DNA from: Cyanidium caldarium
Taxonomy: Eukaryota > Rhodophyta > Bangiophyceae > Cyanidiales > Cyanidiaceae
Assembly (NCBI GenBank): GCA_026184775.1
Contig: JANCYW010000009.1
Span: forward strand, 124,001-188,000
Direction of reading: 5' to 3'
DNA: 64,000 bases
In this document: positions 48,576-55,246 of the stretch, in pieces
How positions within the stretch are numbered: the first letter of the stretch is position 1
Layout of the letters: every line of letters begins with the position of its first letter
Position numbers and translations under genes: made by a program
The notes under the pieces: model-generated
The model's input: only the letters and a program-made list of their open reading frames with translations
Databases searched by the model: none
What the model was told of the DNA's origin: nothing

Positions 48576-48608
48576 TGTGTGTGTGTGTGTGTGTCTCGCT
48601 TTAATAAA
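48576..48608 (+). terminator. Probable 3' processing region: GT tract and AATAAA
   Basis: A (GT)n run at 48576-48594 and AATAAA at 48603-48608 lie just after the plus-strand stop at 48557. The AATAAA overlaps the last codons of the convergent gene. Confidence 0.4.
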
Positions 48609-50352
48609 CGCGCCCCTTCGCATTGGGAGCATGGGCGACCACCTGGCCACAAGCATCCCCACCTTCACACGCTGTATCGCACACCAGACGAAACTTGGCA
48701 AACGCATACGGGTAGCGCGCGTGGTACCAATTGCGAAAGCTCGGGCGCACCAGCTGCCGGTCGGTGGCCCAGGACGCGCCGCGCATCACATAGTGCTTGC
48801 CGTCGAAAAAGTCCTGCGAGTACTCCGGGTACATGTCGGTGGGCGTGAAACGCCGCGCATCCAGCGGGGCGAACACGGTGTCGGTCCACTCCCAACCGTT
48901 GCCCAGCAGATCGTGAACGCCATACCGCGAGGGGTTGTCCGACGCCCGCACGGACACCGGCGACAGACGCCCCCAGTGGTAATTGCCCTCACTCGGCTCG
49001 GCGCCGTTGCCCTCTGCGTCGGCATCGGGATAGCGGATGCCGTCGGCGGCCAGTTGCCATTCGTCCTCGGTGGGCAAGCGGAACCGATGCCGACAGCGAC
49101 CGCGTCGTGCGCATTCCCGGGTGTGCCACCGGACGTAGGCGCGCGCCTCGGCCAAACTCACGTACACCGGCCAGTCGTTGGCCACACAACGGGCGTCACC
49201 CAGCGGATAGGGCACCAGGGTGCCGTCGATACGTAGCGCGTACAAAGCCGGCACCGCATCCATCGAGCCGGCACCGTTCCGCTGGCCTGCGTGCGGGTGC
49301 GCTCGCCAGCAACGCGGCCAAAGCAGTCGTTCGCGAGCCAGCCACGGGGCATCAGAGGGTGCATCCCAGAACGCGTCCACTTGCCGATACCCGCCGGCCT
49401 GCACGAAACGCAGGTATTCACCGTTGGTGACCGGATACACCGCCATCAAGTAGGGCACTCGCACCGACCGCACGACTTGTGGCATTTCATTGTCCCAGAG
49501 GAACGGAGGCGATATCGGGTCGGGTCGCGTAGGAGCGTGCGTTGGCGGGTTGCAGCCCAGGGTCACCGCAGTGCGACTTGGACCGGTGGCGCACGCACCT
49601 ATCGGTACGAATGAATGCCGTTGCTGTGGCGTCGTCTCTGCTCCATGACCGATTCCGTCTCGCTCCTCCGCTTTCCACTCCAGCTGCTTCTTCCAGCGCG
49701 CATCGGTCTGCTGTAGCATGTAACACAGCGTCTCGATGTGCATGAGTTCGTGCTCGACCACCATCCACGCCAAACGCAACCAAGGCTCCTTCGAGGCGGT
49801 GGTGGGGGTGGGGGTGGTGATATCGCCGGCTGCGGCCACGCGCTCCAGCTGCTGCACCATCTGCTGGCGAACATAATCTCGATAGGCGGCCACCATGGTC
49901 ACCGACGGCCAGTCCTCTGCGGCATCCGGCACCTCCGAGTGTCGATGGCAGCGCGTGGGATCGTCCACGTCGGGGTCCATGCCGCGCTCGAACAACACAT
50001 CCAGCTCCTGCAGTTGTGCAGTGGTCAACGTACGCGGCAACGGTGCAACACGGTACTCCTTGCCACATACGACTTGCAGGCGGTTGTGCGCAAAGGCCGG
50101 CAAGTGTCCGAGGTAGAAGAGGAACGGGTGGCGCAGGCGAATCGGTTTCACCAGCAGCGGCCGGGCTGCCGGCTCGCCGTCGGCGAAGAACGTCTGGAAT
50201 AGCCAGTCCGAGCGGCGCCACGATCGGCGCAGCGCTGCGCACGCTCGAGCCAACGGCCCCGACACAGGGGCAGTGTCGTCGTCGGTCCTCGACAGGTCAG
50301 GCGGGAGCCAGCCGCGAGACCACTCGAGCGGTGGCTCTTCCAGCGCGCCCAT
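48601..50352 (-). CDS. EgtB/Egt1-type non-heme iron sulfoxide synthase, no methyltransferase part
   Basis: The 583-residue product has the EgtB/OvoA layout. A DinB-like helical part comes first (HPFLFYLGHLPAF; DWPSVTMVAAYRDYVRQQM) with the iron motif H-x3-H-x-E at H201, H205 and E207. A formylglycine-generating-enzyme-like domain follows, with YPVTNGEYLRFV, FRLPTEDEWQLAA, LLGNGWEWTDTVFAP and FDGKHYVMRGASWATDR. Those last wordings are nearest to fungal Egt1. Such enzymes join a thiol to the imidazole of hercynine (ergothioneine route) or histidine (ovothiol route). Fungal Egt1 also carries an EgtD methyltransferase, and OvoA a C-terminal one; neither is present here. The ATG at 50352 is the first with a proper fold start. 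Confidence 0.88.
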   Translation of the reverse strand: MGALEEPPLEWSRGWLPPDLSRTDDDTAPVSGPLARACAALRRSWRRSDWLFQTFFADGEPAARPLLVKPIRLRHPFLFYLGHLPAFAHNRLQVVCGKEYRVAPLPRTLTTAQLQELDVLFERGMDPDVDDPTRCHRHSEVPDAAEDWPSVTMVAAYRDYVRQQMVQQLERVAAAGDITTPTPTTASKEPWLRLAWMVVEHELMHIETLCYMLQQTDARWKKQLEWKAEERDGIGHGAETTPQQRHSFVPIGACATGPSRTAVTLGCNPPTHAPTRPDPISPPFLWDNEMPQVVRSVRVPYLMAVYPVTNGEYLRFVQAGGYRQVDAFWDAPSDAPWLARERLLWPRCWRAHPHAGQRNGAGSMDAVPALYALRIDGTLVPYPLGDARCVANDWPVYVSLAEARAYVRWHTRECARRGRCRHRFRLPTEDEWQLAADGIRYPDADAEGNGAEPSEGNYHWGRLSPVSVRASDNPSRYGVHDLLGNGWEWTDTVFAPLDARRFTPTDMYPEYSQDFFDGKHYVMRGASWATDRQLVRPSFRNWYHARYPYAFAKFRLVCDTACEGGDACGQVVAHAPNAKGRVY

Positions 50353-50786
50353 CGTGAACGTGAGGTATCGGGTGGAAGAGATGGGTAGCGTCGGGTGTGT
50401 GAACTGTAGCCAAAGCAAGTCTACCCTATTCGAGCGCAATGCTCGCTGGTGATTCTCTGCAACAGCTGCGGTGCATCGTCGTCGAGGAGACGCGCCCCAG
50501 AGCGACACCCACCACCATCCCGAGCGACAGGATGCATGCGATGCGGGTCGTTGTGGCGAACCGCCGAGACGACGGCATACCCCTCGGCAAGGGACATTGC
50601 CGAGCACGCAAGCGTCACCGGGCGCTGCACTGGCCAGAGGCAGACGGGCGGGAGAGGGCATACGACTTTTCCGACAGGGCGCTTTAGAGACGACACCAAC
50701 TCGCTGCCGAGAATCGGGTGGATGCAGCTCGCGAGGTGACCACTCCACAAGCACATCGGCACCATCTTCACAACTGTGTCCAACCT
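50353..50786. other. 434-bp spacer between the sulfoxide synthase and eS19
   Basis: Both flanking genes are on the minus strand, so this is the sulfoxide-synthase leader plus the eS19 3' side. It includes a plus-strand frame of 82 codons at 50439-50687 with an ATG but no known resemblance. It is probably not a gene. Confidence 0.4.
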
Positions 50787-53030: not shown

Positions 53031-54035
53031 TCAGCTTACCGATGCGGCACCCTCGGGACGATCACGCGGCGGCTTGCGACGACGCAGGCGTCCGTTCTTC
53101 TCCCGCATGCGCCGGTTGCCGAACCAGTACGTCACCTGCTTGCGGGACAGACCGGTGGCGCGCACCAGCCGCTCCTTCTCGATCGCCGACGGATACGCAC
53201 CGTGTTGTTCGTAGTGCTCGATGAGGATGCGCTCGGCGTGGCGCGACAATTTGTGCCGCTCCTGACCCATCATGCCACCGCCGGCCGCCGTGCAGAGGTG
53301 TTCGCGCAAGTACGCCTCGCCGTAGTGGCGTTGGACGGCCTTGAAGAGCGTCTCCACGGTGGCGAAGATGCCGTCGATCTGCGCGGGCGGCAATGACAGG
53401 CGCTGCCGGGGGTCTCCATCGGCGGCACCGGCGGATGCGCTGCCGGCATCGACTTGAGGATCCTCTCGCCTATCACCCGGCGACTGGGCGTCCGCTGCAG
53501 TGTCATGCTCGCCGAGAACCTCCGATAGCGGCGATATCATCGCAGGTTGAGCGGTGAAACGCGCCACTTGCCGGGCACGCTCCAGCGCATCCTGTGTCTC
53601 CAGGCGCATGCGGAGGAGGCGCAGAAACTCGCGCGTGGCGATCACATCGGCGGAGGATGCCTGCACGCTGCGCACGTCATCACCGACGTTGGCGCTGTCC
53701 AAAGCGATTTCGCGCAGCAACATGTGGGCCACGTCGGTATGTTGCATGCGCAACAGCGGCTGCAGCGTCTGCAATAAACGCCGGTTCTGCGCGGCGCCCT
53801 CGCCAGCGCCTTCCGCCATGCTCCAGACGCCCCGCTCGTGTGCCGCCAACAACGCGCCTTCGTGCTCCACTGCCGCCAGCAGATGGGAGAGCTTTCGCGA
53901 CGCCAGCGATGCCACCGTGCGCGCCGACCCAGCGACGTTTATAGGGCGGCGGCGTAACGTCCCCGCAGGGTCGCCGTGCGACCGCAACCGACTGGCAACG
54001 TCGCGCGCCTGCTTCAGATGCGCTTTGGGAAACAT
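53031..54035 (-). CDS. Homeodomain protein, HD1-like (non-TALE)
   Basis: The 334-residue product carries a homeodomain at the C-terminal end: HKLSRHAERILIEHYEQHGA, then YPSAIEKERLVRATGLSRKQ, VTYWFGNRRMREKNGRLRRR. Recognition-helix residues W, F, N and R (WFGNRR) are kept. It has one extra residue in the helix 1-2 loop and not the three of TALE. The AYPS piece recalls fungal HD1 mating proteins. The upstream part is helical and Ala/Arg-rich with no known domain. The frame upstream of 54035 is unlike protein; the start could also be an ATG at 54077. It lies 326 bp from a TALE homeobox gene on the same strand. Confidence 0.85.
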   Translation of the reverse strand: MFPKAHLKQARDVASRLRSHGDPAGTLRRRPINVAGSARTVASLASRKLSHLLAAVEHEGALLAAHERGVWSMAEGAGEGAAQNRRLLQTLQPLLRMQHTDVAHMLLREIALDSANVGDDVRSVQASSADVIATREFLRLLRMRLETQDALERARQVARFTAQPAMISPLSEVLGEHDTAADAQSPGDRREDPQVDAGSASAGAADGDPRQRLSLPPAQIDGIFATVETLFKAVQRHYGEAYLREHLCTAAGGGMMGQERHKLSRHAERILIEHYEQHGAYPSAIEKERLVRATGLSRKQVTYWFGNRRMREKNGRLRRRKPPRDRPEGAASVS

Positions 54036-54361
54036 GGCGGCCGCTGCACCCCTGCAGCAACCGCTCCACAACACCAACACCATCCCTGGGTGCTGCCATT
54101 CGTATATGCGGCGACATCTTCCCGAGTATGAACCGTCGCCCGCCTCCAAACGTCCATCACCGGTCAAGCGCTGACGGGTGGAACCCGCGCGCGATCCATC
54201 ACAACACGCGCGCGCGTCATCATCGGCGGCGATCGGCGGCGGTGGGTGTGCGCAGCGCGCGTAGAAACGGAGAACAGAGGAACCGGGAACAAAAGTCCCG
54301 CGTAGTGACAGCTTCATGGAGAGCACCTCATCTTCTGGACATCCATTTGGCATCGCCTCCT
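54036..54361. other. 326-bp spacer between the two homeobox genes
   Basis: It holds the 3' side of the TALE gene and the upstream region of the HD1-like gene. No gene and no repeat of note were seen. Confidence 0.4.
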
Positions 54362-55246
54362 TTACATGCCCCGGTACCCGCCACTGAAAGTTGTGGTTGT
54401 GGTCGGGCTCCATTTGCGTTTGCGAAAGTTGATGAACCAGTTGGTGACTTGACGCACGGTGACGCCGGTCTGCTCGCTCATGCGCAGTTTGGTCTCGTCG
54501 CTGGGGTACGGGTGGCGCCAGTTTTGTCGCGCCCACGCTTCGAACGTGTCGATGGCGGCTTTGGGCAACGGAGCACGCCGGCGCATGCGGGCCGAAACGT
54601 GGGATGCGTCGGCATCGCACGAGGAGCGCATACACTCCGGAGCTACGTCCTCGTCGTTATCCGCTGTATCCTCTTCGCGGTGGCCCTCTTCGGCTACCAC
54701 GACATGCAGACCGCCGCACGCCGTCCATTCCGCCTCGTCACTCTCGGAGATGCACCGCGGTATGGCGATTTCATGATCGGCGGGTATGCCTATCGTCACG
54801 CTGCTCCGTCGCTCGGTCGACCCCGTCACCGTACCCGGCTTGAGCGATACACTCGCTGCGGAGATGGCGTCTTCGCAGGTCATCGGCGTTGCGCGTGATG
54901 TCGCCCGACGAGATGCCTCCCACGGGGTGCCCGCGGCGCCCACCATGCCCATCGAGTTGGCCACCACCACCTCCGGTTGCACCCGACCATAACGCACGCC
55001 TGGCACCGTGCGCCGCCGTGCTGCCCCCGCCGGCGCCTGGCTCCTATCTGCCGGGCCGCTGCGTCGCGGCGGCGGCGGTGCCACGCCCCGATAGCGCCCT
55101 CCGCCGCTCCACACGCCGCGACCGCACGGCGTCACCGTCACCGTCAGCCGCGGTGGCTCCGCCCGCGCGTCATCCTCCAGCGCATCCGCACCGCCATCCC
55201 GTTGCCGGCCCTTCGGACTGTTCAACAGCGCCTTGGGAAACGTCAT
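54362..55246 (-). CDS. TALE-class homeodomain protein
   Basis: The 294-residue product ends in a TALE homeodomain: LPKAAIDTFEAWARQNWRHP, YPSDETKLRMSEQTGVTVRQ, VTNWFINFRKRKW, with the three-residue loop extension (PYP) and Ile50 of the recognition helix (WFIN). The rest is Pro/Arg-rich and acidic with no KNOX, BELL, PBC or MEIS block. Only about 15 residues follow the homeodomain. In green algae TALE pairs control zygote development. The N-terminus MTFPKALL resembles MFPKAHL of its neighbour. The start is the ATG at 55246. Confidence 0.88.
   Translation of the reverse strand: MTFPKALLNSPKGRQRDGGADALEDDARAEPPRLTVTVTPCGRGVWSGGGRYRGVAPPPPRRSGPADRSQAPAGAARRRTVPGVRYGRVQPEVVVANSMGMVGAAGTPWEASRRATSRATPMTCEDAISAASVSLKPGTVTGSTERRSSVTIGIPADHEIAIPRCISESDEAEWTACGGLHVVVAEEGHREEDTADNDEDVAPECMRSSCDADASHVSARMRRRAPLPKAAIDTFEAWARQNWRHPYPSDETKLRMSEQTGVTVRQVTNWFINFRKRKWSPTTTTTFSGGYRGM

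What the first reader, a model, noticed from the sequence alone, without database searches (positions are those of the whole stretch)
53031..55246. HD1-like and TALE homeobox genes next to each other
Two homeobox genes of different classes lie in tandem with 326 bp between them. One is HD1-like (WFGNRR, AYPS) and the other TALE (WFIN, PYP). Established knowledge: pairs of a TALE and a non-TALE homeodomain protein control mating or diploid identity in fungi, and TALE-TALE pairs do so in green algae. Inference: this could be a mating or life-cycle locus. The N-termini share FPKA, which might be a common motif or an old duplication. Neither carries a KNOX or BELL block.
Basis: partly seen in the sequence, partly recalled or inferred. 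Interest (0 to 1): 0.75.

Follow-up and report, generated by a model that had tools for sequence, protein, structure and literature searches.

The report
Adjacent TALE-like homeobox genes, red alga
Two neighbouring homeobox genes of a hot-spring red alga look like relatives of the genes that switch algae from the one-set to the two-set chromosome phase, but they probably are not its mating-type locus, whose likely counterpart lies on another chromosome.

Summary
The genome (20 contigs, 8,787,356 bp) fits the published red alga Cyanidium caldarium 063 E5 (inferred). Both homeobox genes are real, on the minus strand, 326 bp apart. The upstream one (54362-55246) is a canonical TALE gene with a KNOX-like homeodomain. 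The downstream one (53031-54035) has a WFGN homeodomain closest to PBX/Extradenticle, but its loop is one residue longer than normal instead of three, so its class is open. A BELL-like TALE gene starts 21 kb away. If the short-loop gene is counted, three of four TALE-type genes start within 22.2 kb (simulated chance 7.5e-5); for the three canonical genes alone, two within 21 kb has chance 0.014. Three of the four proteins begin M(x)FP[KR], one of them from another chromosome.

A mating-type locus is not supported: the HAP2 and LRR/TNFR-receptor pair that flanks the candidate mating-type region of Cyanidioschyzon stands together on contig C4. [quoted passage not shown] Dimerisation, expression and linkage in other genera were not tested.

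The parts
54362..55246 (-). TALE homeobox gene, 294 aa, KNOX-like homeodomain at residues about 222-281 (WFIN, HPYPS); the rest predicted disordered
   Evidence: best solved relative MEIS2, 51.2 bits; confident only around the homeodomain; with KN1/KNAT3, 92/84, not starred
53031..54035 (-). Atypical homeobox gene, 334 aa, C-terminal homeodomain at residues about 258-316 (AYPS, WFGNRR), one-residue loop extension, N-terminal part predicted helical at low confidence
   Evidence: (best solved relative Extradenticle, 35.7 bits)
54022..54035 (-). Start of the atypical gene, coding for MFPKA
   Evidence: (C9:178022-178035)
55230..55246 (-). Start of the TALE gene, coding for MTFPKA
   Evidence: (C9:179230-179246)
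54036..54361 (-). 326-bp gap between the two tandem genes; holds most of the upstream extension of the atypical ORF, which does not score as coding

Best explanation
The two genes belong to the small TALE-type transcription-factor set of Cyanidium caldarium, which is partly clustered on contig C9. Shown: a TALE gene with a KNOX-like homeodomain lies directly upstream of a WFGN homeodomain gene with PBX-like affinity, and a BELL-like TALE gene starts 21 kb away. Inferred: their proteins work in the KNOX/non-KNOX dimer network that licenses the haploid-to-diploid programme after gamete fusion. Further inferred: the proximity helps joint regulation or reflects old duplication, and mating type is set elsewhere, at the HAP2 locus on C4.
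For: KNOX-like homeodomain groups with KN1/KNAT3 at 92/84 and matches MEIS best in the PDB. The neighbour matches Extradenticle/PBX best and groups with PBX at 82/71. Three of four TALE-type genes start within 22.2 kb; P 7.5e-5 by simulation with 22.4 kb. Three of four begin M(x)FP[KR]; among 202 first-ATG ORFs of at least 150 aa in nine stretches of DNA held (8 kb of it counted twice) the only two hits are TALE genes. Relatives of both genes, at 89% and 88% identity, are each listed on a contig of 22,004 bp, probably one contig. [quoted passage not shown] caldarium is haploid-dominant (PMC13353863 section 15). KNOX to non-KNOX dimerisation was shown by yeast two-hybrid in three prasinophytes (PMC6219170 Results).
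Against: No KNOX, PBC or POX domain is detected. Tests for KNOX, MEIS or PBC homology before the homeodomain gave no clear support for either gene. The second homeodomain fails the three-residue TALE rule, and an alliance with SIX1 is not rejected (p-AU 0.33); next after PBX its solved matches are non-TALE (DUX4 31.9, Hox-B13 30.0, SIX1 29.3 bits). Without it, the clustering is much weaker (two of three canonical TALE genes within 21.1 kb, P 0.014). The KNOX-like gene has Asn at His23, one of three positions whose divergence made Joo et al. treat two PBX-Red proteins as falsely placed among KNOX-Red1, and grouping with BEL1 is not rejected (p-AU 0.124). The published count for this species is two KNOX plus one BELL-related gene; I count four TALE-type genes and could not read the data set that would match them. 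In Cd. caldarium the KNOX gene was not haploid-dominant. None of the three relatives of the second gene is named as from Cyanidiococcus, Cyanidioschyzon or Galdieria; two carry no name at all, and the search is limited by word matching and length.
Confidence: 0.5

Rival explanations
1. The pair is the mating-type locus, with diverged alleles in the two mating types, like fungal HD1/HD2 loci.
For: Homeobox pairs determine mating type in many fungi (recalled), and a TALE pair lies on the sex-determining regions of the red alga Bostrychia (PMC13353863 section 15).
Against: The HAP2 and LRR/TNFR pair that borders the Cyanidioschyzon candidate region is on C4 here. The atypical gene is found in other sources at 89% identity over its whole length (P0004) and 100% over 69% of it (P0005), though their mating types are unknown. 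The genes are in tandem, not divergent as in fungal HD pairs (recalled). [quoted passage not shown]
Confidence: 0.04
2. The atypical gene is a non-TALE homeobox gene of unrelated function, and its place beside a TALE gene is incidental.
For: One-residue loop only; Pfam Homeodomain scores slightly above Homeobox_KN (43.4 against 41.5 bits); SIX1 alliance not rejected.
Against: Shared N-terminal FPKA; PBX best hit; chance proximity 0.0047 for six genes.
Confidence: 0.25
3. The two genes are an old tandem duplication of one TALE gene; the downstream copy lost two loop residues and diverged fast.
For: Same strand, adjacent, and nearly the same letters at the start, TTTCCCAARGCGC.
Against: The homeodomains do not pair with each other in the tree; FPKA is absent from the starts of P0008 and P0006 as predicted; a similar start in the C19 gene means the motif does not single out the pair.
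Confidence: 0.15

Closest known systems
KNOX-Red1 TALE homeobox genes of red algae (Joo et al. 2018, PMC6219170)
   Same: Canonical TALE loop, KNOX-like WFIN..RKR.W, Trp19 and Lys31 in the upstream gene.
   Different: No detectable KN-B or ELK block; Asn in place of His23 (the Cyanidiococcus relative has His).
PBX-Red / PBC-type TALE genes
   Same: WFGN and best match to Extradenticle/PBX in the downstream gene; in a three-sequence profile a stretch before the homeodomain aligns with the second half of PBC-B at about the same distance.
   Different: Loop two residues shorter than TALE; that PBC-B match is not significant (P 0.087, 21 columns) and single-sequence runs placed it elsewhere.
KNOX-Red2 (WFGN-bearing KNOX of Cyanidiophyceae and Florideophyceae)
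   Same: WFGN; Joo et al. note that KNOX-Red2 associates with PBC sequences in trees because of it, as here.
   Different: About 21 residues follow the homeodomain, so little room for KN-C2; no KN-A or KN-B found; short loop.
Fungal HD1/HD2 mating pairs; Chlamydomonas GSM1/GSP1
   Same: Two homeodomain proteins of different type, possible heterodimer.
   Different: Tandem rather than divergent (recalled for fungi); not at the inferred mating-type region; GSM1 and GSP1 are expressed in opposite mating types, the Galdieria genes in both.

Membership tests
TALE superclass | Three-residue loop extension, PYP (upstream gene) | tested here: met
   Alignment; Homeobox_KN 57.4 bits
TALE superclass | Three-residue loop extension (downstream gene) | tested here: not met
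   One residue longer than the usual form, two shorter than PBX; so called TALE-type here only as a working name, not filed as a TALE member
KNOX (KNOX-Red1) | Homeodomain in the KNOX clade | tested here: inconclusive
   92/84 with KN1 and KNAT3, recalled references, not starred; grouping with BEL1 not rejected, p-AU 0.124; His23 is Asn
KNOX (KNOX-Red1) | KN-B and ELK homology before the homeodomain | tested here: not met
   Not found by Pfam; own-genome KNOX2 search found nothing, but its control rang nowhere either; shuffle test 6 of 40. The red-algal profiles of Joo et al. were not on hand
PBX-Red | PBL domain (second half of PBC-B) | tested here: inconclusive
   hhalign P 0.087, probability 0.7%, 21 columns; last 60 residues: 50 of 2000 shuffles reach the PBX1 score and 106 of 2000 the EXD score; whole segment 447 and 737 of 2000; P0006 last 60: 361 and 465, whole 536 and 414 of 2000. 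Single sequence: 8 of 40 and, for P0006, 4 of 40, neither in register
PBX-Red | Homeodomain with PBC class | tested here: inconclusive
   82/71; SIX1 alternative p-AU 0.33, KNOX alternative 0.168
KNOX-Red2 | WFGN motif | tested here: met
   YWFGNRRM
KNOX-Red2 | KN-A, KN-B and C-terminal KN-C2 | tested here: inconclusive
   No KNOX homology (30 of 40 shuffles reach the score); about 21 residues after the homeodomain; KN-C2 profile not on hand
Mating-type locus | Location between HAP2 and an LRR/TNFR receptor gene as in Cyanidioschyzon | tested here: not met
   That gene pair is on C4; assumes the region has kept its place
Mating-type locus | Divergent alleles in opposite mating types | not testable with these tools
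   No second haploid genome on hand

The most novel reading that the evidence does not exclude
Cyanidium carries a compact TALE cluster, KNOX-like, PBX-like and BELL-like genes starting within 22.2 kb, that works as one regulated life-cycle switch separate from mating type: haploids of both types load the whole dimer set from one locus, and fusion, controlled from the HAP2 locus, releases it. The WFGN protein would be a lineage-specific dimer partner with a shortened loop, and M(x)FP[KR] a shared control tag.
Probability: 0.15. Interest if true: 0.75.

Novelty: new variant of a known kind. Interest (0 to 1): 0.45.

Why it matters
Cyanidiophyceae diverged early from other red algae, and their sexual cycles were reported only in 2022 (Galdieria) and 2026 (PMC13353863). 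If the clustered genes are the life-cycle dimer set, mating type (HAP2 locus) and phase switch (TALE cluster) are physically separate in an early plant lineage, and this can be tested by gene deletion in haploid Cyanidium, for which PMC13353863 reports targeted replacement. The short-loop WFGN homeodomain would also be a useful case of a partner protein drifting out of the TALE definition.

Tried and rejected
Mating-type locus: set aside as unlikely after HAP2 and the LRR/TNFR gene were found together on C4.

Start of the atypical gene at 54083 or 54413: not favoured; the codon score there is slightly negative.

Class of the downstream gene: PBX-Red, KNOX-Red2 and non-TALE were all tried; none is settled. 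One search made 18 comparisons (six proteins, three references, 40 shuffles each); the C9:199 kb protein stood out (MEIS 0 of 40, KNOX 1 of 40), which does not fit its BELL-like homeodomain and is unexplained; with 18 tests it may be chance.

Relatives with DNA: scans of genome contigs (prokaryote genomes, so little was expected) and viral contigs matched 19, 176, 18 and 30 stretches by pattern, none confirmed. Protein searches: four proteins for the atypical gene, one the window's own (7995 candidates scored); four for the TALE gene, one its own (7209 candidates); the same four in the region search at E up to 10 (29 candidates).

Structure models: mean pLDDT 45.8 and 48.7, confident only at the homeodomains; no fold search was run, as the rest would be meaningless. 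Own-genome searches for PBC and KNOX2 found nothing, and their controls rang nowhere, so they show nothing.

Papers: PMC13353863 outline, sections 7 (part 1 of 2), 12 and 15, and passages; PMC6219170 outline, Results parts 1 and 2 of 3, and passages; PMC6685973, PMC12502185, PMC13062707 and PMC9812998 passages only; Hirooka 2022 not held. That I did not see this linkage in print rests on those readings and on the listings; papers outside the held library were not seen.

Full report
What the window is. The window is contig C9, positions 124001-188000, of a genome of 8,787,356 bp in 20 contigs. The three Cyanidiales genomes of PMC9812998, one of them Cyanidium caldarium 063 E5, have 20 chromosomes each, with mean sizes from 439.4 to 827.3 kb (passages); here the mean is 439.37 kb, and PMC13353863 gives 8.73 Mb for another Cd. 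caldarium strain. I infer that the window is Cd. caldarium 063 E5. Both homeobox genes read as single open frames.

Observation. Both genes are confirmed at the stated coordinates. They are on the minus strand, so the TALE gene comes first in transcription. The flanking genes are ordinary: ribosomal S19e and L21e and a cytochrome b5 protein on one side; a TMF-like coiled-coil protein, superoxide dismutase, a PCI-domain protein, Fip1, a mitochondrial carrier and a sigma-70 factor on the other.

The homeobox set of the genome. Two Pfam searches gave five places each, together six loci: C9:177 kb and C9:178 kb (the pair), C9:199 kb, C9:370 kb, C12:279 kb and C19:52 kb. Genes with an intron in the homeobox could be missed. 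Three have the canonical TALE loop (C9:178, C9:199, C19:52); one has a one-residue extension (C9:177); two are non-TALE (C12, C9:370). The C9:199 kb protein is 332 aa; its homeodomain scores best with BEL1 among the recalled references and pairs with it at 62/84. The three C9 TALE-type genes start within 22.2 kb. Simulation, which ignores contig ends, gives 7.5e-5 for three of four random genes within 22.4 kb and 3.95e-4 for any three of six. This counts the short-loop gene; for the three canonical genes, two within 21.1 kb has probability 0.014. Of the genes between, those I scanned look unrelated.

The upstream gene. Its homeodomain matches MEIS and PKNOX best among solved structures and groups with KN1 and KNAT3 (92/84). 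Relatives outside the closest strain are Cyanidiococcus F1559_004415 (62% over 22% of the query) and an unnamed JGI protein (67% over 21%). Trp19 and Lys31, which Joo et al. treat as conserved along with His23, are present; His23 is Asn here and His in the Cyanidiococcus protein (numbering mine). Outside the homeodomain it is predicted disordered, and no KNOX block is found.

The downstream gene. Its homeodomain matches Extradenticle and PBX best (35.7 bits), then DUX4 (31.9), Hox-B13 (30.0) and SIX1 (29.3), and groups with PBX at 82/71. The loop is one residue longer than usual, not three. An alliance with SIX1 is not rejected (p-AU 0.33), nor one with the KNOX group (0.168). Joo et al. state that red-algal KNOX-Red2 also carries WFGN and associates with PBC sequences by convergence, so the PBX affinity must be read with care. 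In a three-sequence profile a stretch before the homeodomain aligns with the second half of PBC-B (PBX1 and EXD recalled), not significantly (P 0.087); single sequences aligned elsewhere. The model suggests a helical N-terminal part at low confidence. Relatives found: P0004 (89%), P0005 (100% over 69%) and P0006 (51% over 40%; 58% over the homeodomain region). The 101 residues around the homeodomain are 98% identical to P0004 against 89% overall, as expected for a working DNA-binding protein.

The N-terminal motif. The two proteins begin MFPKAHL and MTFPKALL. The DNA pattern for ATG(0-3)FPKA occurs four times in the genome; two are these starts, one (C20:15533) is in frame elsewhere and was not checked for a gene, one (C15) is out of frame; the reversed control pattern occurs nowhere. 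The C19 TALE protein begins MVFPRSQL, with different codons. By N-terminal composition a start M(x)FP[KR] has probability 5.0e-4, about 2.5 per 4,900 proteins. Among 202 first-ATG ORFs of at least 150 aa in nine stretches of DNA held, of which 8 kb overlap, the two hits are the upstream gene and the C19 gene; the downstream gene is not counted there because its ORF opens further upstream. The C19 case came after the motif had been noted in the pair and was one of two further TALE genes looked at; the C9:199 kb protein lacks it. The starts of P0006 and P0008 lack it too, so it is not ancient or those predicted starts are wrong. Its function is unknown; a control tag or a relic of duplication are guesses.

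Mating type. PMC13353863 (section 12) places the candidate mating-type region of Cyanidioschyzon merolae between HAP2 (CMK076C) and a receptor-like protein with LRR, growth-factor-receptor and TNFR domains (CMK078C). In this genome HAP2 (C4:419434-421542, plus strand, 428 bits) stands head to head, 531 bp apart, with an 884-aa protein carrying LRR, ephrin-receptor-like and TNFR-like domains (C4:416248-418902, minus strand). The inferred mating-type region is therefore on C4, if the region has kept its place between genera.

Most likely working. [quoted passage not shown] In prasinophyte green algae KNOX proteins bind non-KNOX TALE proteins. The best-supported reading is that the C9 cluster holds part of this dimer set in Cyanidium. 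Dimerisation, expression and phenotype of these genes are inferred. The published count for Cyanidium (two KNOX, one BELL-related) does not map cleanly on four TALE-type genes; I could not read the data set that would resolve it.

Linkage elsewhere. The three Cyanidiales genera share 86.0% collinearity (PMC9812998), so the linkage may be older, but I could not look.

Verdict.

Noticed in passing
L019:2249-7543 (C4:416248-421542): HAP2 head to head with an LRR/ephrin-receptor-like/TNFR-like receptor gene, 531 bp apart: the likely counterpart of the Cyanidioschyzon candidate mating-type region, and so a predicted mating-type region of Cyanidium.
   Followed up: partly
L017:2743-5160 (C9:368742-371159): An 805-aa ORF with both a homeodomain and a methyl-CpG-binding domain, an unusual pairing; PMC13353863 names Dnmt3 as the only predicted DNA-methylation enzyme in these algae.
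   Followed up: no
L006 reverse strand, C9:199308-199427 and upstream: A TALE protein with a BELL-like homeodomain whose N-terminal part scores above all 40 shuffles against MEIS: a mixed signal, or chance among 18 tests.
   Followed up: partly
L015:2314-3321 (C19): A canonical-loop TALE protein whose third helix reads NDYYSNKRMR in place of the usual WFxN, starting MVFPRS.
   Followed up: partly
window 48601-50661: ORF with DinB_2 and sulfatase-modifying-factor domains, the layout of ergothioneine synthesis protein EgtB (recalled).
   Followed up: no
P0005 (eukprot ctg_210.g163): This public gene model of the atypical homeobox gene has an N-terminal half read from another frame (compare the 145-aa ORF at 53680-54117); probably a gene-model error.
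   Followed up: no
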